DNA from: an uncultured Limosilactobacillus sp. | GTDB lineage: Bacteria > Bacillota > Bacilli > Lactobacillales > Lactobacillaceae | NCBI GenBank assembly: GCA_944327195.1 | Contig: CALVGV010000009.1 | Coordinates: 1 to 57,619, forward strand | DNA: 57,619 nt | Reading direction: 5' to 3' | Shown: positions 6,286 through 37,134 of the stretch, one piece after another | How positions within the stretch are numbered: position 1 is the stretch's first letter | How the letters are laid out: the number at the start of each line of letters is the position of its first letter | Made by a program: the position numbers and the translations under genes | Notes under the pieces: model-generated | Seen by the model: the letters and a program-made list of their open reading frames with translations, nothing else | Databases searched by the model: none | Told to the model about the DNA's origin: nothing

Positions 6286-6369
6286 TGCCCCAAACAGGAT
6301 TCGAACCTGTACATGGTTACCCATACAACGACCTGAACGTTGCGCGTCTGCCAGTTCCGCCACTGGGGC
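6286..6369 (-). tRNA. tRNA-Leu (anticodon CAG)
   Basis: Acceptor stem GCCCCAG pairs with TTGGGGC and the discriminator base is A. There is a long variable arm typical of leucine tRNA. The anticodon stem CAACG/CGTTG encloses the loop TTCAGGT, giving CAG. The T-arm is GTTCGAATC. CCA is not encoded. Confidence 0.93.
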
Positions 6370-6393
6370 ATCTTAAGAATATTCAATTCTTAA

Positions 6394-6465
6394 TGCGCCC
6401 CCGGGGAGTCGAACCCCGATCTCGAGAACCGGAATCTCACGTGCGATCCATTACACTAAGGGCGC
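6394..6465 (-). tRNA. tRNA-Arg (anticodon CCG)
   Basis: Acceptor GCGCCC pairs with GGGCGC and the discriminator is A. The anticodon stem TGAGA/TCTCG encloses TTCCGGT, giving CCG. The T-arm is GGGGTTCGACTCCCC. It is transcribed ahead of tRNA-Leu. A TATAAT box on the minus strand at about 6485-6480 is a likely promoter element. Confidence 0.93.
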
Positions 6466-19852: not shown

Positions 19853-21250
19853 CTATTGCTTGGCGACGGCCCGCTTCGGCAGGGTGGCCAGGCCAGTCAG
19901 TAGGATGATCACGATCAACACAAGGAGGAAGAGAAAGGCCTCTTGGGTGCCGACCTTGGTGCCGACCAGCTGGCAGTGCTGGCGCTGACTGGCGGCGACG
20001 ATCACCGAAACCAGCGAGGTTCCCATCGCCCCGGCGAACTGCTGGAGGGTGTTCAAGATGGCGTTCCCCTGGGTTTGCTGGTTGTCCTTCAGGAAGGTCA
20101 GGGCGCTGGTCATCAGGCTGCCCATCGTCATCCCCATCCCGAACATGTAGAAGATGTAGACGGTGGCAACCAGGCCGTCGGTCAGCTGGCGGGCCAACAG
20201 GGTGAAGAGGACGATCGCCAGCAGCATCAGGCAGTTGCCGGCCACGATCGGCCGCCGGGCGCCGTACTTATCGAGCAGGCGGCCCCCCACCGGAGCGGCC
20301 ACGGCCCCGGCAAAGCCGGCCGGCAGAACCACCATCCCGGCAACCAGGGCCGACTTGCCGTTGACCAGCTGGATGTAGTTGGGCAAGAGGAAGGCGAAAC
20401 CGAGCGAGCAGAGCTGGGTGAAGAAGAACATCAGGAGGATCCGGTGGAAGCGCCGGTTGGTCAAGAGACGCAGGTCCAACAGGGGTTGGTCCAGTGTCAG
20501 GGAGCACCAGGTCAGCCCGGCCAGACCAAGAAGGCCGAGCAACCAGGCCCCGCCGACCGCCATGCTAATTAACGGCTGGCCGGAAAGGTTGGCAAAGCCG
20601 GTCACCAGGCCGCCGAAGAGGAGGGCGATGAAGCAGAGGCTGAGCTGGTCGAAGCGGCCGCGCTGCGGCGGGGTCGGCTGTTGGATGCCGGCGATCCCCA
20701 GCAGGAGTGAGACCACCAGGAAGGGCAAAAGGAAGATGAAGACCCAGCGCCAGCCCATCCCGGTGACCACCAGGCCACCAAAGGTCGGACCGAGGGCCGG
20801 GGCGATCCCGGTGATCAGGTTGGCGACCCCCATCATCAGCCCCAGCTTTTCTTGCGGCACCTGCTCGAGGATGATGTTGAACATCAGCGGCAGGGAGATC
20901 CCGGTCCCCAGCCCCTGGATCAAGCGACCCAGGAGAAGGAAGGTGAAGTTGGGCGCGCTGGCGTCAATCACCAGTCCGAGGATGAAGAGCAGGTTGGCAA
21001 CGATGAAGAGGTGCTTGGTCTTGAAGGAGCGCTTGAAGTAGGCCGACAGCGGCACCATCACCGCCACCACCAGCAGGTAGATTGAGGTCATCCACTGAAC
21101 AACGTTGGTGGTGACGCCGAACTCCTTCATCAGGGTCGGGAAGGAGATGTTCATCGCCGTTTCGACGATCACCCCACAAAAGGAGAGCAGGCCGGTGGCG
21201 ACCACCGCCATGATCAGCTGCGGGGTTAATTGCTTTTTACTGGTCGTCAT
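19853..21250 (-). CDS. MFS multidrug exporter, DHA2 (EmrB/QacA) type
   Basis: A 465-residue membrane transporter with about 13-14 hydrophobic helices. MTSIYLLVVAVMVPLSAYF and GRLIQGLGTGISLP match the conserved motifs of drug:H+ antiporters, and GPTFGGLVV is the antiporter motif C. The marR gene overlaps its start by 14 nt upstream, so regulator and pump form one operon. Substrates cannot be read from the sequence. Confidence 0.88.
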   Translation of the reverse strand: MTTSKKQLTPQLIMAVVATGLLSFCGVIVETAMNISFPTLMKEFGVTTNVVQWMTSIYLLVVAVMVPLSAYFKRSFKTKHLFIVANLLFILGLVIDASAPNFTFLLLGRLIQGLGTGISLPLMFNIILEQVPQEKLGLMMGVANLITGIAPALGPTFGGLVVTGMGWRWVFIFLLPFLVVSLLLGIAGIQQPTPPQRGRFDQLSLCFIALLFGGLVTGFANLSGQPLISMAVGGAWLLGLLGLAGLTWCSLTLDQPLLDLRLLTNRRFHRILLMFFFTQLCSLGFAFLLPNYIQLVNGKSALVAGMVVLPAGFAGAVAAPVGGRLLDKYGARRPIVAGNCLMLLAIVLFTLLARQLTDGLVATVYIFYMFGMGMTMGSLMTSALTFLKDNQQTQGNAILNTLQQFAGAMGTSLVSVIVAASQRQHCQLVGTKVGTQEAFLFLLVLIVIILLTGLATLPKRAVAKQ

Positions 21251-21665
21251 TCTCGTTCCCCCTGATTGCCCGTTGCAGGAAGGCGGTGATTACCTCGCGT
21301 TCGCTAGCGGTGAAACCCGCCTGGAGCCAGTCCTCGGACGCGGTGATGTGCTCGCGAATCACCGGGATCAGCTCGGTGGCCTTGGCGGTGAGCTGCACTA
21401 GGCGGCGGCGTTGGTCCCCCGCCACCACCTTCTTGACGATCAGCCCCTTCTTCTCCATCCGCTGGAGCAGGATCGTGGTGGTCGAGCGGCGAATGCGAAA
21501 CTCGCGCTCGATTGTCTGCTGACTGCTGCAGTAATCCTCCTGGCGACCAAGAAAATCGATCACCGACATCTGGGTGCCGGTGAGGTCGTAGGGAGCGGCG
21601 AAGCGGTCGAACTCGGTTGCTAACTGGTAGTTGGCCTGTTTGATTAAGCGACCATAAAACATCAT
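21237..21665 (-). CDS. MarR family transcriptional regulator
   Basis: A winged-helix repressor of about 142 residues (start MMFYGRLIKQANYQLATEFD). The wing segment reads IRRSTTTILLQRMEKKGLIVKK. AGGAGG precedes two adjacent ATGs (21665 and 21662); the second has the better 7-nt spacing. It overlaps the MFS gene by 14 nt. A TTGCTA-N2-TAGCAA palindrome beside its promoter is a likely autoregulatory operator, so the pair would be induced when a ligand releases it. Confidence 0.9.
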   Translation of the reverse strand: MMFYGRLIKQANYQLATEFDRFAAPYDLTGTQMSVIDFLGRQEDYCSSQQTIEREFRIRRSTTTILLQRMEKKGLIVKKVVAGDQRRRLVQLTAKATELIPVIREHITASEDWLQAGFTASEREVITAFLQRAIRGNENDDQ

Positions 21666-21681
21666 ACTTCCTCCTTTTTGT

Positions 21682-21723
21682 TTGCTACCTAGCAATTTTA
21701 GTTAGTTGGCAAACAATTGTCAA
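21682..21723 (-). promoter_or_regulatory. marR-MFS promoter and operator
   Basis: On the minus strand TTGACA (21723-21718), 17 bp, TAAAAT (21700-21695). A perfect palindrome TTGCTA-CC-TAGCAA lies at 21682-21695 right after the -10, and GTTTGC/GCAAAC flank the region. This is placed well for a MarR dimer. Confidence 0.75.
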
Positions 21724-21801
21724 CCTCCTTGCTGTAAATCTCTTCAGCGAGGGGCCAAAAAGGAGCTGGGGCCAACCCGCTGCGGCTACCATCAGCTAAA
21801 C

Positions 21802-22260
21802 GGAGCAGACTAGGGGATCAAAATCATGTCCCACGTTCCTCAATACTCCGGAAGCTATGGAGTGCAGACTCCCCCGCTCTAGTTGCCGCACCCACGTTTC
21901 GTTGTCGGAGGCCGGAGCAGAGCAGACCCGGGAGCTCAGGGGTAAAATCTCATTTGGCGGTTCATCGTCTAATGAAAGACTGAATTCTGAGACCCGGAAA
22001 GGAGTTTAGAATCATGTCCACCCTGTTCTTCAATCTGCCAGAAGCTATGAATCGTAAACTCCCCTACTCTAGTTGCCGCAGCCACGTTTAGTCGCCGGGG
22101 CCGGAGCGGAGCAGACCCGGGAGCTCAGGGGTGAAATTTCACTTGGCGGGTTTCCCGCCTAGTGAAAGGCCGAGTTCTGAGACCCGGAAAGGGGCTCAGA
22201 ATCGTGCCCACCCCGTTCCAGTCTCCCGGAAGCTGCGGAGCGGAGGCCCCCTGCACCCCG
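21802..22260 (+). ncRNA. tandem ~189-bp repeats resembling a structured RNA element, unknown class
   Basis: No protein-coding frame is convincing between 21730 and 22300. Instead there are imperfect tandem units. The marker AATCATGTCC / AATCGTGCCC begins at 21822, 22010 and 22200 (spacing 188 and 190), and a shortened unit precedes the first. Shared blocks include CTCTAGTTGCCGCA, GACCCGGGAGCTCAGGGGT and TCTGAGACCCGGAAAGG. Each unit has two hairpins. One is 21951-21974 and 22137-22167: stems keep the same T-T mismatch, T-A in unit 1 becomes C-G in unit 2, and a G-T pair becomes G-C. The other pairs TTCTGAG with TTTAGAA (21985-22011) or CTCAGAA (22175-22201). Wobble pairs are G-T on the plus strand only, so a plus-strand RNA is favoured. 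I cannot match it to a known family. Confidence 0.5.
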
Positions 22261-22267
22261 CCAACCA

Positions 22268-22293
22268 AAAAGCCCCACCGCAAAAGCGAGGGG
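22268..22293 (-). terminator. terminator of the small membrane protein gene
   Basis: GCCCCCTCGC-TTTT-GCGGTGGGGC then TTTTT on the minus strand, just after the stop at 22307. Confidence 0.8.
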
Positions 22294-22306: not shown

Positions 22307-22564
22307 CTAAACGAGGGCCTCGGCCACCCGGAGGATGACCAGGAGGAGGCAGAGGGCGCTGAGCAACCAGGTTAGGCGGCGAACCCGGCGGTTGCCGGCC
22401 TTCCACTGGGCCCAGTTGAAGACCAGGTAGGCGGCAACCACGCAGAGGCTGCCGGCAATCCCCAGGATCCCGGAGTGAAAGTTCTGGTGCTGGATTGAGA
22501 AGGACATCATCAAGAGGATGCCGAAAATCATCAGGAGGCTGGCAATAATTTGACGCTTGGGCAT
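22307..22564 (-). CDS. small three-helix membrane protein, unrecognised
   Basis: An 85-residue protein starting MPKRQIIASLLMIFGILL. Three hydrophobic segments (about residues 5-22, 33-52 and 64-83) cover it, with a basic loop RRVRR between helices 2 and 3. I chose ATG at 22564, which follows GGAGA. It has its own terminator, and an ATTTCCCGGGAAAT palindrome lies 15 bp upstream of the start. I do not recognise the family. Confidence 0.6.
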   Translation of the reverse strand: MPKRQIIASLLMIFGILLMMSFSIQHQNFHSGILGIAGSLCVVAAYLVFNWAQWKAGNRRVRRLTWLLSALCLLLVILRVAEALV

Positions 22565-22578
22565 AAAGTTCTCCAATC

Positions 22579-24727: not shown

Positions 24728-27700
24728 TTAATTTTGCCGCTTGCGCTTGGCACCGAGGGCCGCCAGGGCACCGAAGAGGCCAGCCAGGCCGAGGCCGGCG
24801 GCGGCTGCCGGGTTTTCGTTCCCGGTTTGCGGCAGTTGGGCTGCCTGATCCTTGGCCGTGGTTGCACTAGCGCTAGCCGGTGCGGCGCTCTTGGCCGCCG
24901 CTTGGGACGGCGTTGCTGGCGAGGTCAGCTTGGTCGTTTCGGTGTTACCGGTTTGGCTCTTGTTGGCCTTGCCGGTGGTCCCACCCTGGTTGCCAGCTGC
25001 CGGCGTGGTGGTCGAGGCTTGGCCTTCCTTGGCCACCTTGACAGTGATCGTCTGGTCGCCGGTCAGGGTGAGGGTCGTCGGCAGGTCTTGGCCGGTGACG
25101 ATCTGGTAGCCAGTCGGTACGTTGGCCGTAATCCCGGTCGTGACCTCTTCGCCATCCTTGCCGGTTACCTTGTAGGTCTTGACGACCTGGTTGCCGTTTT
25201 GGTCGACGTAGGTCACCGTCAGGGTGTGTTCCTTTGCTACTGGCACGTTGATCGTCTTGTCGCTCGTCAGAGTAACCGTATCTGGCGTGTTGTTGGAGAC
25301 AATCGTGTAGCCGTCCGGAACGTTGTCCTTGATCTTGGTCGTGACCGTGTTGCCGTCCTTGCCGGTTACCGTGTAGGTCTTGACCGTCTTATTACCGTTT
25401 TGGTCGACGTAGTTAACGGTCAGGGTGTGGTCTGCCGTTGGCGTCTCGTTCTTCGTGACCTTGACCGTGATCGTCTTGTCGCCATCCATCGTTACCTCGG
25501 TTGGCAACGTTGGGTCTGGCACCTTCGTGTAGCCAGTCGGCACGTTTTCGTCGATGTTGGTCTTCACATTGTCACCGTCTTGGTGAGTCGTGGTGGTCGT
25601 CTTCACCGGCGTACCCGTCTTTTCGTCAACGTAGGTGATCGTCAGCTTGTGGTCTTCCGTCTTCTTTTCAACCTTCACCGGGATCGTCGATGGGGTCTTG
25701 TCGTTGAAGTCAACCGTCTTCGGCAGGTTTTGGCCGGTAACGATCGTGTAGCCATCCGGAACGTTGTCCTCGATCTTGGTATTAGTCGAGGTCCCAGTCT
25801 TACCCGTCAATTCGTAGCTATCAATCGTCTCGCCAGTCTTGTTGTCGATGTAGGTAACGGTCGTCTTCTTCGTTTCGTCCGTTGGCGTGGTTGGCGTTTC
25901 CTTCTGCTCAACCGGTACGTTGATCGTCCGGTCGCTCGTCAGGGTTACCGTGTCCGGCGTGTTGCTGCCAGTGACGATTTGGTAGCCGTCCGGTACGTTA
26001 TCCTTGATCCCGGTCGTGACGTTCTCGCCGTCCTTGCCAGGTACCGTGTAGGTCTTGACCGTCTTGTTGCCATTTTGGTCGACGTAGTTAACCGTCAGGG
26101 TGTGGTCTTCCGTCGGCGTGGTTGGGTTTGCCGTGTAGGTTACCGTGTAGGCCTCGTTTGGCGTCTTGCTGGTAACCGTTTCGGCGTTAATTGCCGTTGG
26201 GGTGCTGCTTGCCGTGGTGCCGTCTTCGGCCGTCGTTACCAGGGCGATCTTGGCCGTGTAGCCATCAATCGTCGGTACCGCATAGTTGTTCCAGCTTCCC
26301 TCGCTCCACGCGCTGTAGCTGGCGACCTTGCCGGTTACCTCGTCAACCGTGGCCGTCCGGGTCAGGGTGACGTTGAAGGTTTCGGTCTTCTTGGTGCCGT
26401 CCGGTTGAACTACCGTTACCGTCCGGGTGACCGTCTTGTTGAGGTCGCTCTGGCCAACCCCCTTCGGGTAGGTCTTGTCGGCGTTGTCCGGCAGCGGGTC
26501 CTTGGTCGTCTTCGGGTCGGTTGGCGTAACCGTGGTCAGCTTGTGGCCAACCTTAACGACGATCGGCGTGTTGGTTCCTTCCTTAAGGTTGACCGTTGCG
26601 TGGTTATTCTTCAGGTTGGTCGTCCCTTGGGTGATCGTGGCCGTGCTCGTGTCGTAACCAAAGGCGGCCAACTTCGCCAGGGTGCTGTCGATATCGGTGT
26701 TAACGTCCTTGCCGGCATCATCCTTCAGGTTCTTGGTGTAGGCATTCAGCTGCTGGTTCGTGTCCGCGTCAACGTATTGAACCTGCAAGGTCCCCTGCTT
26801 AGCCTGGTTCTTGGAGTAGTAAATAGTTACCGTTTGGTCGGTTGTCGTGTTCGTAACCGGGGTCTTCGCAACCACCTTAATCGTTGGCGTGTAGCCATCA
26901 ATTTCAGGGGTGGTGAACTGGCTCCATTCACCCGTGGCCCACGTGTCCGTAAGCACCTTGCCGGTTACCTTATCTGTCGTAACCGTGTGGGTCAGGGTTA
27001 CCGGCTGGGTCGTGATCTTGGCATCCCCGGTCGTCGGGTCGATCACCTTAATCGTCCGCGTAACCGGCTTATTCGTCGTTTCCGTTACTTGCTGGTGACG
27101 GACAACCACCTCGATGTCCGGGTTTTCATCCGCCAATACCACGTTCTTGTAGTTGGTCAGTTTTGTCCCGTTTTGGGTCACCCCAACCAGTTCGTATCCT
27201 TGGTCGCTGAGCTTTCCAAGGGTATCCCCAATACCAGTCTTAGTTGAGTAACCACTCTTCCCATTTACCGTCGAGTTGTATTTTGACAGGTCGTTGCCAC
27301 CCTCGTCCTTGTAGGTGATGTTAACACTGGTTTCGGCGGCCGACTTGGTGGACATGTTGACGACGATCGTTGCGCCATCCTTCATCTGAAGGATCGTCAT
27401 GTTGTCGCTAGACAGGGTCAAGCCCCCGTTGTCCTTTACATAGTAGCTCTGGTACTGCGGCATAAACTTTTCAACCGTCGCTGCCCGGAGCGGAATGTTG
27501 ACGTCTGCCGACGCCCCTTCCGATCCCGTAACCTTGTAAGTCATGTATTGCTTGGTAGGCAACTTGATCAGTTCATTCGTGTCCTCATCGCGGAATTCAA
27601 CCGTCACCGTTGCTTCCGCGGCCGGAACGTAGGTGACTTCGTGATCTGTCCCCAGGTTCTCCGTTGGGGTGAACACGTTCGTCCCGGAATCCTTCAACTT

Positions 27701-29752
27701 GTAGGTTACCTTCGAGCCATCCGCAAGGGTAACGGTGTAGCTTTCGGCGAGCTTGGTCTCGGCCGCCTTGGTTGCGTCGCTACTATCGTTGTTGTATTGA
27801 ACCGCAAAGCCAGTTCCGTCCGCATTTGTCAGGGCGTTGCCGTTCTCGTCAACCGGAATCATTGACCCCAGCTTCTGGTAGGTAACCGTCGTGGTGCTAG
27901 TTGGATTTGCCGGCGTTACCGTTGCCCCGGCAACCGTTGCTTGGTCAGCATAGTAGCCCGTGACAACCGGCGTCTTTACGTCGTTGAAGGTGTGGGAATC
28001 CTCGTTCCAAGTCGATTCCCCGGTCGTCGTGTCGTAGGTCTTTACGAAGCTTGCTTTCTGGGTATTTGCTACCGGGGTGGCGCTCCCCGCCCCGGTGTAG
28101 GTTACGGTTTGGCTTGCTTGCTCGGTGTCATCAAAGATGTATTCCGGCGCCGCAGTCCCCCCGGAGAAAACGTTCCGTTCGTATTGACCCTTGTTCCGGA
28201 GCAAGTGGTAGTACGGGTCGTTGATATCAACGTACAACGTTGAATCAGCGTCGCCGGCAACAACAATCTTAACCGTCCCTTGGTACCTAGCCGTCGTGCT
28301 AGTTTCAAGGGCTGCCCGGGTTGCTTCATCCTTCAACGTCCCGGTCTTTTCATTTACGTACCCATCGGTAATTGACGGCATCGTGCTGTAGTAGTCAGAA
28401 ACACTCCCCGGAACGGCAGTGTAAGTGGTGTTGGACAGGCTTGAGTACTTTACAGCTCCCCGGGCGTATTCCGAGATCTTCCCGGTAACGATATTGCCAG
28501 AAACGGTTAGGCCCGCTTGGTCCACCTTTTCGGACTGCAGGGTCCCGTCAGCACTGGTGTAAATCCCCTGCAATGGCGCGGTAAAGGTTTGCCCCGCTAG
28601 CCCGGTAATTGCAACGTAGCCAAGGGTGTTGCCATCGACATCCAAGTAGTAGGCCTTCATCGTAACCTTCCGCGGGATTACGATCTTGTCACCAACCCAA
28701 CGGGAGCCATAAGGAGCCCTTACCCCTGCCCAAGAGAATAGTTGCTCAACGGGGCCAACGTCCGAGCTAGTTTTATTATAACTAAGCATCCCATCAAGCG
28801 CGGTAATCTTGTAACCGGCAGCGGTGATCCCATTTTCATCGTCGGTTGGAACCTCTTCTTGACCAACTTGGTTTCCGTCCTCGTCATAGAAGGTTGCCCA
28901 AACCTTCCCATCACCGGTCTTGTTGGTTGAGAAGGCGATTTCCCAAACGTCCTTACCGTTAACCTGATTAGCACTGTTTTCACGGCGAATCTCGTCGAGG
29001 CCGATTACCCCGAAGGTGATCCGCCCCTCTGTTTGGTCGTAATTGAAACGACCACTCCAAGTCCATTGAGCAGAACTAGAATCAGTCCGCAGGGATGGCG
29101 TCCACCATTCGCTTTCGACAGAGTAGCCGTCCGTTGAGATGTTCGAGTTGGAAGCAACAACCGAGCCAATTTCGTAGTCGCTGTCACTAGTCGTCGTTGC
29201 GCTGGTGTTAACTGCTAACGAGGTCAGCATGGCGCTAACGTTCGTTGCACTAGTAGCGGAAGTAAGGTCAGCCGTGGTGGCACTGCTAGTTGCACTTGTC
29301 GAGTTGGCGCTGGTAGTGGCACTGGTTGCACTGGCGCTAGTTGCTTCGCTGGTTGCGGCGCTTTCGGCTACTGCCGTGCTGGATGCAGCGGAGCTAGCGG
29401 CTTGGCTGGTTGCGCTCGTGGTGGTTGCGCTTGCAGAAGTGGCCGAAGAAGATGCCGCACTCGAGTCAGCCGCCGAACTGGATGCAGCGGAAGTGGAAGC
29501 CGAAGCAGACGAGGTGGCGCTCGTCTTCAAGGTCGTTGCACTTGACTGAGTAGTCGCTTGATCAGTCGTCGCCGTGGTTGCCGTTGCTTCGTTAGTCACT
29601 TGATCGGCTGATGCCGAGGTCGTTGCACCCATGAAAAGCAGGGCCCCAACCATTACAGAAACCGTCCCGATGCTTAACTTACGCAAAGAAAACCGTTGTT
29701 GTTCATTCGCGGTTTTCTTTTCGCTCATTACTCGATTGTTCTTTGAAAACAT
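24728..29752 (-). CDS. giant LPXTG-anchored mucus-binding-type adhesin
   Basis: A 1674-residue surface protein. The N-terminus is a YSIRK-type signal peptide (RFSLRKLSIGTVSVMVGALL). Residues ~55-185 are Ala/Ser/Thr-rich low complexity, followed by a folded region of ~200 residues rich in aromatic residues (ESEWWTPSLRTD, WTWSGRFNYD). Then come MucBP/Mub-like domains: two long ones with RTIKVIDPTTG or RTVTVVQPDGT followed by EIDGYTP or TIDGYTA, and five C-terminal ~65-residue modules. The C-terminus has LPQTG, a hydrophobic helix and KRKRQN, so sortase A anchors it to peptidoglycan. ATG at 29752 follows GGGAGG. It is monocistronic. A role in adhesion to mucus or host is inferred from the architecture. 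Confidence 0.92.
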   Translation of the reverse strand: MFSKNNRVMSEKKTANEQQRFSLRKLSIGTVSVMVGALLFMGATTSASADQVTNEATATTATTDQATTQSSATTLKTSATSSASASTSAASSSAADSSAASSSATSASATTTSATSQAASSAASSTAVAESAATSEATSASATSATTSANSTSATSSATTADLTSATSATNVSAMLTSLAVNTSATTTSDSDYEIGSVVASNSNISTDGYSVESEWWTPSLRTDSSSAQWTWSGRFNYDQTEGRITFGVIGLDEIRRENSANQVNGKDVWEIAFSTNKTGDGKVWATFYDEDGNQVGQEEVPTDDENGITAAGYKITALDGMLSYNKTSSDVGPVEQLFSWAGVRAPYGSRWVGDKIVIPRKVTMKAYYLDVDGNTLGYVAITGLAGQTFTAPLQGIYTSADGTLQSEKVDQAGLTVSGNIVTGKISEYARGAVKYSSLSNTTYTAVPGSVSDYYSTMPSITDGYVNEKTGTLKDEATRAALETSTTARYQGTVKIVVAGDADSTLYVDINDPYYHLLRNKGQYERNVFSGGTAAPEYIFDDTEQASQTVTYTGAGSATPVANTQKASFVKTYDTTTGESTWNEDSHTFNDVKTPVVTGYYADQATVAGATVTPANPTSTTTVTYQKLGSMIPVDENGNALTNADGTGFAVQYNNDSSDATKAAETKLAESYTVTLADGSKVTYKLKDSGTNVFTPTENLGTDHEVTYVPAAEATVTVEFRDEDTNELIKLPTKQYMTYKVTGSEGASADVNIPLRAATVEKFMPQYQSYYVKDNGGLTLSSDNMTILQMKDGATIVVNMSTKSAAETSVNITYKDEGGNDLSKYNSTVNGKSGYSTKTGIGDTLGKLSDQGYELVGVTQNGTKLTNYKNVVLADENPDIEVVVRHQQVTETTNKPVTRTIKVIDPTTGDAKITTQPVTLTHTVTTDKVTGKVLTDTWATGEWSQFTTPEIDGYTPTIKVVAKTPVTNTTTDQTVTIYYSKNQAKQGTLQVQYVDADTNQQLNAYTKNLKDDAGKDVNTDIDSTLAKLAAFGYDTSTATITQGTTNLKNNHATVNLKEGTNTPIVVKVGHKLTTVTPTDPKTTKDPLPDNADKTYPKGVGQSDLNKTVTRTVTVVQPDGTKKTETFNVTLTRTATVDEVTGKVASYSAWSEGSWNNYAVPTIDGYTAKIALVTTAEDGTTASSTPTAINAETVTSKTPNEAYTVTYTANPTTPTEDHTLTVNYVDQNGNKTVKTYTVPGKDGENVTTGIKDNVPDGYQIVTGSNTPDTVTLTSDRTINVPVEQKETPTTPTDETKKTTVTYIDNKTGETIDSYELTGKTGTSTNTKIEDNVPDGYTIVTGQNLPKTVDFNDKTPSTIPVKVEKKTEDHKLTITYVDEKTGTPVKTTTTTHQDGDNVKTNIDENVPTGYTKVPDPTLPTEVTMDGDKTITVKVTKNETPTADHTLTVNYVDQNGNKTVKTYTVTGKDGNTVTTKIKDNVPDGYTIVSNNTPDTVTLTSDKTINVPVAKEHTLTVTYVDQNGNQVVKTYKVTGKDGEEVTTGITANVPTGYQIVTGQDLPTTLTLTGDQTITVKVAKEGQASTTTPAAGNQGGTTGKANKSQTGNTETTKLTSPATPSQAAAKSAAPASASATTAKDQAAQLPQTGNENPAAAAGLGLAGLFGALAALGAKRKRQN
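25030..26110 (-). repeat. five tandem MucBP-like modules inside the adhesin gene
   Basis: Each ~65-residue module starts like HTLTVNYVDQNGNKTVKTYT, continues with GKDG and NVPDGYTIV, and ends TLTSDKTINVPV. Three of the five (the first, fourth and fifth) are very close to each other in DNA, the middle two more diverged. Copy number could change by recombination, and short-read assembly could collapse it. Confidence 0.85.
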
Positions 29753-30251
29753 CTCAGTTCCTCCCAAAATTTATCGTTTGATATTGATTTAACGACTTAT
29801 GATTTAAATTCTTTTAACCGAGATGTCAATAATCGAAAACAAATAATTCATAAATAGCGAGAACGGTTTATGATTCTTCATGATTAACATTATCTTTGAA
29901 ACCGCTTTAAGTCACGGTTTATTGGCTGATTAAACACTTCTTAAACTATTATTCGCGCCGGAAAAAATTTTATGGATTTCTCGCCTGTCCCACCAGCCAA
30001 AAACCGGTTTACTTCCCGTGGTTATCGCCTTTCACCATCCCGTTCCGGATTAATAATCGCATTATAAAACAGGTGTCGCATCCCGCTCCGCCAGTCGCAT
30101 TCCCGCGGCTTTTTATTCACATTTCCGTCACCTTTGCCTAGCAAATCACAAGAAAGGCGGTCGTGGTTGATTGTCTCCCCCACTACGGCCAGTTTCGCTG
30201 ATAACGGTCGATAGGTGAAGGAGCGGCACTGTCCTTCCCTAGCCGCAAAAC
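29753..30251. other. intergenic region upstream of the adhesin
   Basis: About 500 bp without a convincing gene. 29760-29950 is AT-rich and should hold the adhesin promoter. TTGAAACCGCTTTAA at 29896-29910 is a near match to a CcpA cre site, with one key base off. 29990-30250 shows short open frames but no ribosome site or known motif; I see nothing I can support there. Confidence 0.4.
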
Positions 30252-36749: not shown

Positions 36750-37119
36750 GGGGATGTTTTTGGATTCGACGGGCATAGGTCGCGTCCGAACTGCGTTTAA
36801 AGGTGGCGCTTTTAAAAACGCTCAGTTTTCAAATTATAACTGCAAACAATAATTCACAATCCTACGCATACGCTGCCTAACCGGTAAGCATGCGTAAATC
36901 CGGCCGGGCTCGTCCATGGTCCGTTCCCGGGTTTCATTAGCAGTGGACTTACGTTTTCCCTTGCCGCTTGAGGGGGAGAAAAGAGATCTTCCAAGCTCGC
37001 CGGCCATGGTTGCCTTGATTAGCGGCGGGTTGACCGGTTAAACATAAGTAGTTGATCTATGAGCGTAGAGGTTCGGATGGCGATATGGTCGGACAGGGGT
37101 TCGACTCCCCTCATCTCCA
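36750..37119 (+). ncRNA. ssrA: tmRNA
   Basis: A 370-nt transfer-messenger RNA. The 5' end GGGGATG pairs with CATCTCC before the discriminator A; the T-arm is GGGGTTCGACTCCCC. The tag frame (36842-36880) encodes ANNNSQSYAYAA then TAA. Its promoter on the plus strand is TTGTAC (about 36705) with TATTCT (about 36729). It rescues stalled ribosomes; tagged products go to ClpXP, whose clpP is in this window. Confidence 0.97.
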
Positions 37120-37134
37120 TTTTTGATGATTTTC

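What the first reader, a model, noticed from the sequence alone, without database searches (positions are those of the whole stretch)
21802..22260. Tandem ~189-bp structured elements with compensatory base changes: candidate new RNA class
Seen directly: units start at 21822, 22010 and 22200, plus a shortened one before. In hairpin 1 (21951-21974 versus 22140-22164) both units keep the same T-T mismatch, one pair changes from T-A to C-G, and one G-T becomes G-C. In hairpin 2 two G-T pairs (21985-22011) are G-C in the next copy (22175-22201). Wobbles are G-T only on the plus strand, so a plus-strand RNA is favoured. No coding frame explains the region. Tandem duplication of a folded element in a ~575-bp gap between a MarR regulator and a small membrane protein gene is unusual. 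I cannot name a matching family.
Basis: partly seen in the sequence, partly recalled or inferred. Interest (0 to 1): 0.75.

Follow-up and report, generated by a model that had tools for sequence, protein, structure and literature searches.

The report
Mobile folded repeats of lactic-acid bacteria
The repeats in this window are worn copies of a folded, non-coding mobile DNA element that we could not find described, scattered by the dozen through many lactobacilli, where it lands inside the hairpins that end genes and swaps whole hairpins between copies.

Summary
In detail: window 21801-22252 carries a remnant, a decayed core (21909-22064) and an intact ~155-nt core (22098-22252). But the core is a dispersed family: 70 places in fetched stretches of the own genome; 105 of 397 Lactobacillaceae genomes, 13 of 40 genera; no Rfam match. 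Copies share a three-way-junction fold: 51 pairs, 96.4% of cells paired, 40 pairs changed on both sides, 0/500 shuffles.

In two complete relatives (104 and 91 cores) whole elements are ~500-530 bp: two outward-facing cores, inverted repeats GGTTCTTTCTTAAG, a 7-bp target duplication. In 6 of 6 resolved insertions the restored site is a terminator-like hairpin (random sites 29 of 822). So: a non-autonomous mobile element, comparable to BOX or bcr1; its transposase was not found.

At sites shared by the two species whole hairpins are replaced: 6 of 10 otherwise near-identical cores differ in hairpin P2. Covariation is therefore partly cassette exchange, not independent events. G-U excess in the inner hairpins favours an outward-strand RNA; transcription and function are unshown. 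The own-genome copies show no such ends (0 of 59) and no duplication was recognised.

The parts
21801..21879 (+). remnant copy: outer-helix 5' arm joined to outer-helix 3' arm, both inner hairpins missing
   Evidence: repeat families D3, D5, D6 and sequence; not hit by the model
21880..21908 (+). 5' extension of the next copy (AGTTGCC..GTTGTCGG), like the upstream flank of many other copies
   Evidence: read from sequence; upstream flanks of other copies
21909..22064 (+). decayed core
   Evidence: R1 99.1 bits, E 4.8e-18 (a training row); nhmmer
22065..22097 (+). 5' extension of the intact copy
   Evidence: read from sequence
22098..22252 (+). intact core: three-way-junction fold
   Evidence: R1 175.6 bits, E 2.4e-33 (a training row)
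22098..22136 (+). outer helix P1, 5' arm, with two GGA strands of symmetric GGA/GGA internal loops
   Evidence: pair counts on A1
22137..22167 (+). hairpin P2 with conserved T.T mismatch
22168..22208 (+). hairpin P3 with bulged G
22209..22252 (+). outer helix P1, 3' arm
22273..22291 (-). terminator-like hairpin at the end of the neighbouring minus-strand gene (a neighbour, not part of the element)
   Evidence: 2 such sites found, 1.7 expected from shuffles, so weak on its own
21237..21695 (-). neighbour: MarR-family regulator
   Evidence: Pfam PF12802 1.4e-13
22307..22576 (-). neighbour: 89-aa ORF; two weak Pfam matches to membrane families, both below cut-off

Best explanation
The window array is a degenerate tandem of copies of a structured, non-autonomous mobile element of Lactobacillaceae. 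SHOWN: (1) a ~155-nt core with one conserved three-way-junction fold; (2) high copy number and patchy spread over 13 sampled genera; (3) in two better preserved genomes, an element of two outward-facing cores around a variable middle, with terminal inverted repeats, a 7-bp target duplication and, for one copy, an empty site in a sister species; (4) insertion at terminator-like hairpins in all six resolved cases; (5) exchange of whole hairpins in place. INFERRED: it is moved in trans by a transposase not identified here. Landing in terminator loops or just past stop codons makes insertions tolerable. The fold acts mainly as RNA of the outward strand, kept because a stably folded untranslated segment lowers the cost of the insertion or is recognised by the mobilising machinery. 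Short-tract conversion between copies spreads hairpin variants. The window copies are old, partly decayed derivatives whose ends are no longer recognisable.
For: Copies: 61 blast places in the own genome; 71 nhmmer rows, one a duplicate, so 70 places in the fetched stretches. Fold: 40 of 51 pairs with double changes, 411 cells v a mean of 111 in shuffles, 0/500. Spread: 105 of 397 family genomes, 13 of 40 genera; 104, 11 and 37 matches in G181, G103 and G422; 91 in G437; class sample 1 of 398, the own genome only. Composite: all 27 neighbouring core pairs less than 400 bp apart in G181 are head-to-head. Mobility: element in G181 v intact terminator in G437 with CTTGTGG duplicated; in the 16 of 137 loci with both ends recognisable the adjacent 7-mers match 0.67 v 0.34 +- 0.05 (best of 500 shuffles 0.51); six restored sites are terminator-like hairpins against 29 of 822 random nearby sites by the same criterion; nested insertions into the P2 loop of another copy, L135 and L137 (read by eye). 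Exchange. RNA strand.
Against: No transposase with matching ends was found: ISL3-type IS of G181 share only the first bases and make an 8-bp duplication, and three end-like places without a listed core were relics. Of 59 full own-genome cores none has the outer end found in the relatives (best 13 of 22; shuffled patterns reach 15). Only 16 of 137 loci in G181 and G437 have both ends recognisable, and 10 of these 16 show no clear 7-bp duplication; L112 shows a longer repeat, 11 of 12 letters. Wobble pairs are rare (1-4%) and rows are related, so the strand asymmetry is suggestive only; G.T v A.C is 31 v 24 over the own-genome structure and 12 v 18 in its P1, and 32 v 31 in A3's P1. No expression data.
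Confidence: 0.85

Rival explanations
1. A cis-regulatory RNA (riboswitch or leader) controlling downstream genes on the outward strand.
For: Some own-genome copies end just before a ribosome-binding site and start codon (e.g. L050 7895, L046 4358, L041 11079, L056 4472; read by eye); conserved unpaired letters and G-U excess in hairpins.
Against: Downstream gene orientation is mixed: own genome 26 same v 33 opposite of 59; other species 18 v 29 of 52, five without a called gene (crude ORF calling). In the window the downstream gene is on the opposite strand. One copy is absent at its site in a sister species.
Confidence: 0.07
2. A DNA-level structure (cruciform or single-strand hairpin used in transposition or replication) with no RNA role; pairing is kept by hairpin-templated conversion.
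For: Very few wobble pairs; G.T about equal to A.C in the own genome; whole hairpins replaced at once; insertion at hairpin loops.
Against: G.T excess over A.C in P2 and P3 (19 v 6, 62 v 9, 54 v 14). Conserved mismatches and a bulge survive exchange, so simple palindrome correction is not the whole story.
Confidence: 0.3
3. A domain of ISLre2-family insertion sequences that escaped and multiplied.
For: Full core 15 nt after the transposase stop in ISLca4-type IS on two plasmids and in two genomes; a weak 29-bit match at the same place in a Loigolactobacillus backii-type IS.
Against: 26 of 30 ISLre2-family loci show no core, though several are cut by contig ends. Relatives at 49% identity have the same 3' end without it. 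G181, with 104 cores, has no UPF0236 match. Ends differ from the MITE ends.
Confidence: 0.1

Closest known systems
BOX elements of streptococci (PMC3049150; abstract start and passages seen)
   Same: modular intergenic repeat, folds as RNA, many copies, variable middle, probably parasitic
   Different: here two outward-facing three-way-junction cores, targets at terminator-like hairpins, hairpin exchange at shared sites; BOX sequences themselves were not compared
bcr1-bcr18 of the Bacillus cereus group (PMC3446304, PMC6542083, PMC2267715; passages seen)
   Same: about 150-170-bp structured intergenic repeat (bcr1), MITE-like, dozens of copies, some transcribed in UTRs
   Different: restricted to the B. 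cereus group per those passages, mobility linked to a TTTAT motif; sequences were not compared here
Miniature inverted-repeat transposable elements in general (characterised in a passage of PMC3049150)
   Same: terminal inverted repeats, base-paired, target duplication, no sizeable coding frame
   Different: not AT-rich in the own genome; inner cores carry a conserved multi-branch fold across genera; mobilising IS not identified
ISLre2-family insertion sequence ISLca4 (annotation)
   Same: carries one complete core in its 3' untranslated end
   Different: codes for a transposase, has different ends; relatives lack the core, so it looks like a carrier

Membership tests
Any Rfam 15 family | covariance-model score above the curated threshold | tested here: not met
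   no match on the element in the window, in 8 own-genome stretches and in 12 loci of other species
MITE (non-autonomous mobile element) | terminal inverted repeats | tested here: met
   met in G181/G437: 37 left and 34 right ends of 137 loci at >=16/22, 16 with both; 25 matches v 0 for the reversed pattern in G181. Not met in the own genome: 0 of 59
MITE (non-autonomous mobile element) | target-site duplication and empty site | tested here: met
   7 bp; four perfect, two near-perfect of 16 loci; one empty site with an intact target, in G437
MITE (non-autonomous mobile element) | no transposase gene; ends shared with an autonomous IS | tested here: inconclusive
   no ORF over 71 aa in L118 1025-1552; no IS with these ends found in G181
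BOX element | boxA/boxB/boxC module sequences | not tested
   no module sequence was compared; sampled class genomes did not match our model except the own
ISLre2 family IS | UPF0236 transposase and its ends | tested here: not met
   no such gene in six other core-bearing genomes; two fragments at contig edges in the own genome, one of which shows its 3' end, without a core
ISL3-derived MITE | ISL3-type ends and duplication of the same length | tested here: not met
   G181 ISL3-type ends share only the first bases; 8 bp v 7 bp for the element
Structured noncoding RNA | covariation supporting a fold | tested here: met
   events not independent because of hairpin exchange
Structured noncoding RNA | transcript | not testable with these tools
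   no RNA-seq available

The most novel reading that the evidence does not exclude
The P2 (and P3) hairpins are exchangeable cassettes. Within a genome one hairpin variant spreads through copies of different subtype by tracts about 30 bp long, so each species ends with its own dominant 'key' hairpin (TTATTC.. 19 of 56 cores in G181, TTTCTC.. 18 of 57 in G437), because a trans-acting partner, protein or RNA, must recognise it. This would be a mobile RNA-like element that re-keys its dispersed copies while keeping the fold.
Probability: 0.25. Interest if true: 0.85.

Novelty: new variant of a known kind. Interest (0 to 1): 0.72.

Why it matters
It is a large, apparently unlisted class of structured repeats in a genus-rich, industrially important family. 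It can confound RNA-discovery screens, since covariation here arises partly by exchange of whole hairpins, and genome assembly. It links mobile-element targeting to terminator hairpins. It also gives a natural system in which compensatory change can be set against flanking sequence at shared sites, so the question of how covariation arises becomes directly testable.

Tried and rejected
Riboswitch or leader: rejected because gene orientation is mixed. T-box resemblance of a GGTACCACC motif upstream of one subset: no Rfam hit on eight own-genome stretches. Autonomous copy between distant core pairs: three head-to-head intervals of 2.3-4.7 kb hold ordinary host genes by eye; a 7-kb one in G422 was not examined. 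ISL3 as mobiliser: ends and duplication length differ. Three end-like places without a listed core were relics. Plasmids and phages: the 528-bp element has no match in either collection; an L. namurensis core none in plasmids; viral contigs 0 for the pattern and no relative of the IS transposase. Window-locus empty site in congeners: all 50 genomes of the genus searched (the own included) match some part, but no usable empty site was seen, because the two sides are rarely neighbours and too diverged. Papers: ten searches listed no description of this element; the library holds open-licence papers only, and listings were capped.

Full report
OBSERVATION. The array is a remnant (21801-21879), a decayed core (21909-22064) and an intact core (22098-22252), the last two preceded by short 5' extensions. 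Folding energy alone is not unusual (z -0.4 and -0.8). Rfam has nothing on the array (seven chance-level matches at E up to 10 in the wider stretch, none near its threshold).

A DISPERSED FAMILY. The array finds 61 places in its own 1.79-Mb genome. In stretches fetched around those places nhmmer gives 71 rows, one a duplicate, so 70 places; 57 are full length by the limits. By blast the window core matches only the own genome among 56 searched, of which 32 are congeners. A degenerate DNA pattern of the P3 hairpin finds 39 stretches in named genomes, by their titles all lactobacilli: Levilactobacillus namurensis, zymae, spicheri, lindianensis, humaensis, paucivorans, acidifarinae and parabrevis; Schleiferilactobacillus shenzhenensis; Lacticaseibacillus brantae; Companilactobacillus kimchiensis; two MAGs. 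A covariance model (R1) built from the 57 own copies gives 58 matches in those 39 stretches and matches 105 of 397 family genomes in 13 of 40 genera, at most seven candidates scored per genome. In a class-wide sample it matches only the own genome, 1 of 398 (few family members are listed in that sample). Fuller scoring gives 104, 11 and 37 matches in G181, G103 and G422 and 91 in G437.

THE FOLD. On the 57-row alignment RNAalifold proposes 43 pairs, 33 with double changes. With end and P2 pairs added by me (51 pairs), 96.4% of 2869 cells pair, 40 pairs have double changes, and none of 500 shuffles reaches any of the five measures. The fold is an outer helix P1 with 3x3 GGA/GGA internal loops (the inner one is replaced by ordinary pairs in a subfamily), then a three-way junction with P2, which has a constant T.T mismatch, and P3, which has a bulged G. 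The structure was partly read by eye from the same rows, so the slide control favours it.

WHICH STRAND. Over the whole structure, outer five pairs left out, G.T v A.C is 31 v 24 in the own genome, 96 v 18 in 58 copies of other species and 86 v 45 in a third set of 68 copies, mostly G181 with a few G422. By species and pair it is 53 v 12. In the inner hairpins alone it is 19 v 6, 62 v 9 and 54 v 14; in P1 it is 12 v 18, 34 v 9 and 32 v 31. This favours an outward-strand RNA, but rows are related, the alignments of the last two sets were fitted to the model, some columns are misaligned, and one column gives 31 of the 62. Wobbles are rare overall.

THE FULL ELEMENT. In G181 all 27 neighbouring cores less than 400 bp apart are head to head. 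Aligned composites show [reverse core]-middle-[core] with outer arms GGTTCTTTCTTAAGTTAGGTTA / TAACCTAACTTAAGAAAGAACC in a subset. The outer arm pattern has 25 matches in G181 and 0 for the reversed control. One 528-bp copy (L118 1025-1552) folds with z -11.5 and holds no ORF over 71 aa. The eight two-core elements with both ends found measure 501-528 bp.

MOBILITY. The L118 locus was searched in 36 genomes of its genus, G181 included, and flanking sequence was found in all 36. In G437 the same site is an intact terminator-like hairpin, AAAAAAGAGCTCGATTCTTGTGGAATCGGACTCTTTTTT, and in G181 the element sits in its loop with CTTGTGG on both sides; eight further genomes whose site I printed also lack the element. 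Over 137 loci of G181 and G437, 37 left and 34 right ends reach 16 of 22 matches, 16 loci both. In those 16 the adjacent 7-mers agree at 0.67 against 0.34 +- 0.05 for shuffled partners (maximum of 500: 0.51); length 6 with one left base skipped gives the same signal, other settings little. Four are perfect (L123, L262, L269, L305); L118 (one base offset) and L119 (6 of 7) are near. The other ten show no clear 7-mer, and L112 among them shows a longer repeat (11 of 12). In the six near or perfect cases the restored site is a terminator-like hairpin: in five the 7-mer is the loop with some closing letters, in L262 it is mostly the 5' arm beside the loop. By one written criterion (hairpin overlapping the 7-mer, stem of at least 6 pairs, T or A tract) 6 of 6 pass, against 29 of 822 random sites 120-300 bases outside the cores. 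I had noticed the terminators of L118, L119 and L123 by eye before choosing. L135 and L137 are nested in the P2 loop of another copy (by eye). In the own genome 0 of 59 full cores has such an end.

HAIRPIN EXCHANGE. I fetched 60 G437 places and compared them with 77 G181 loci; flank matches gave 39 locus pairs in which both carry a core. I used 38 and 34, dropping five with a match on one flank only; the 34 gave 44 same-strand core pairs. Their flanks are about 83-97% identical. Median identity is 0.75 for the core, 0.85 for P1 (random pairs 0.53), 0.65 for P3 (0.61) and 0.70 for P2 (0.73): P2 as a whole keeps no trace of shared ancestry. Of the 10 pairs with P1 and P3 both at least 0.90, four have P2 identical and six have P2 at 0.53-0.73, with both arms replaced and pairing kept. 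In the 13 pairs with core identity of at least 0.85, changed pair cells are 37 double Watson-Crick, 11 one-sided G-U and 15 other. One P2 sequence dominates in each genome and sits on several P1 types (19 of 56 cores in G181, 18 of 57 in G437). In the own genome P2 and P3 variants also occur in several combinations. Many low-identity pairs could instead be replaced or independent insertions; only the near-identical ones prove exchange.

CARRIER IS. The window core finds two plasmids. In both, a full core lies just after an ISLre2-family transposase gene, annotated ISLca4 in one. Among 30 loci of such transposases from 23 family genomes, two carry the full core and two a 29-bit match of the L. 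backii type; 26 show none, some of them cut by contig ends and some repeats of one IS. The two full ones (G369, G378) are the same places as two of the best model hits. Relatives at 49% identity have the same 3' end without the core, so the IS is more likely a carrier than the origin. Of seven other plasmid IS relatives only the L. backii one gives a match, 29 bits.

POSITION. Own genome: downstream gene same strand 26, opposite 33; other species 18 and 29, with crude ORF calling. Of the 33 facing genes 11 have their stop codon within 10 bases of the core's end. In the window the facing gene is the 89-aa ORF with a terminator-like hairpin (2 such sites found, 1.7 expected), and the upstream gene is MarR.

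LITERATURE. BOX: abstract start and passages of PMC3049150. bcr: passages of PMC2267715, PMC3446304 and PMC6542083. In the passages shown of the 40-genome survey PMC2267715 the one Lactobacillus is L. johnsonii, its structured family Lac-1 marked genic. That ISL3- and ISLre2-type elements have characteristic ends is recalled; the ends used here were read from the sequences.

VERDICT. A new, widespread, structured, MITE-like repeat family; the window holds old copies. Transcription, function and mobiliser are open. The exchange of whole hairpins at fixed sites is the most unusual result.

Noticed in passing
window 24728-29767 (-): 1679-aa surface-protein-like ORF with a YSIRK-like start, long repeats and an LPQTG-like end (read by eye).
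   Followed up: no
window 36750-37122 (+) and 6286-6465 (-): tmRNA and two tRNA genes by Rfam.
   Followed up: no
L189 1450-3184 and L190 1446-3185 (plasmids of L. brevis and L. plantarum): ISLre2-family IS carrying one complete core in its 3' end.
   Followed up: yes
L191 and L192 (own genome contigs C36 and C25): UPF0236 transposase fragments at contig edges, no core found; possibly an IS that broke the assembly.
   Followed up: partly
G181 loci L150-L157: Eight near-identical ISL3-type IS; 8-bp duplications read by eye at several.
   Followed up: partly
L064 3875-4254 and L072 2897-3273: Apparently the same composite in L. paucivorans and L. humaensis, differing in P3 by a compensatory pair.
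   Followed up: partly
L112, L116-L119, L123 (G181 element middles): The variable middle of many composites holds a long hairpin (AAAATAGCATCTATTCAG..) of its own.
   Followed up: no
own genome, upstream of cores in L042, L045, L048, L049, L052, L056: A conserved GGTACCACC motif 5' of one subset of cores, and remains of outer copies around some inner ones (nested insertions).
   Followed up: partly
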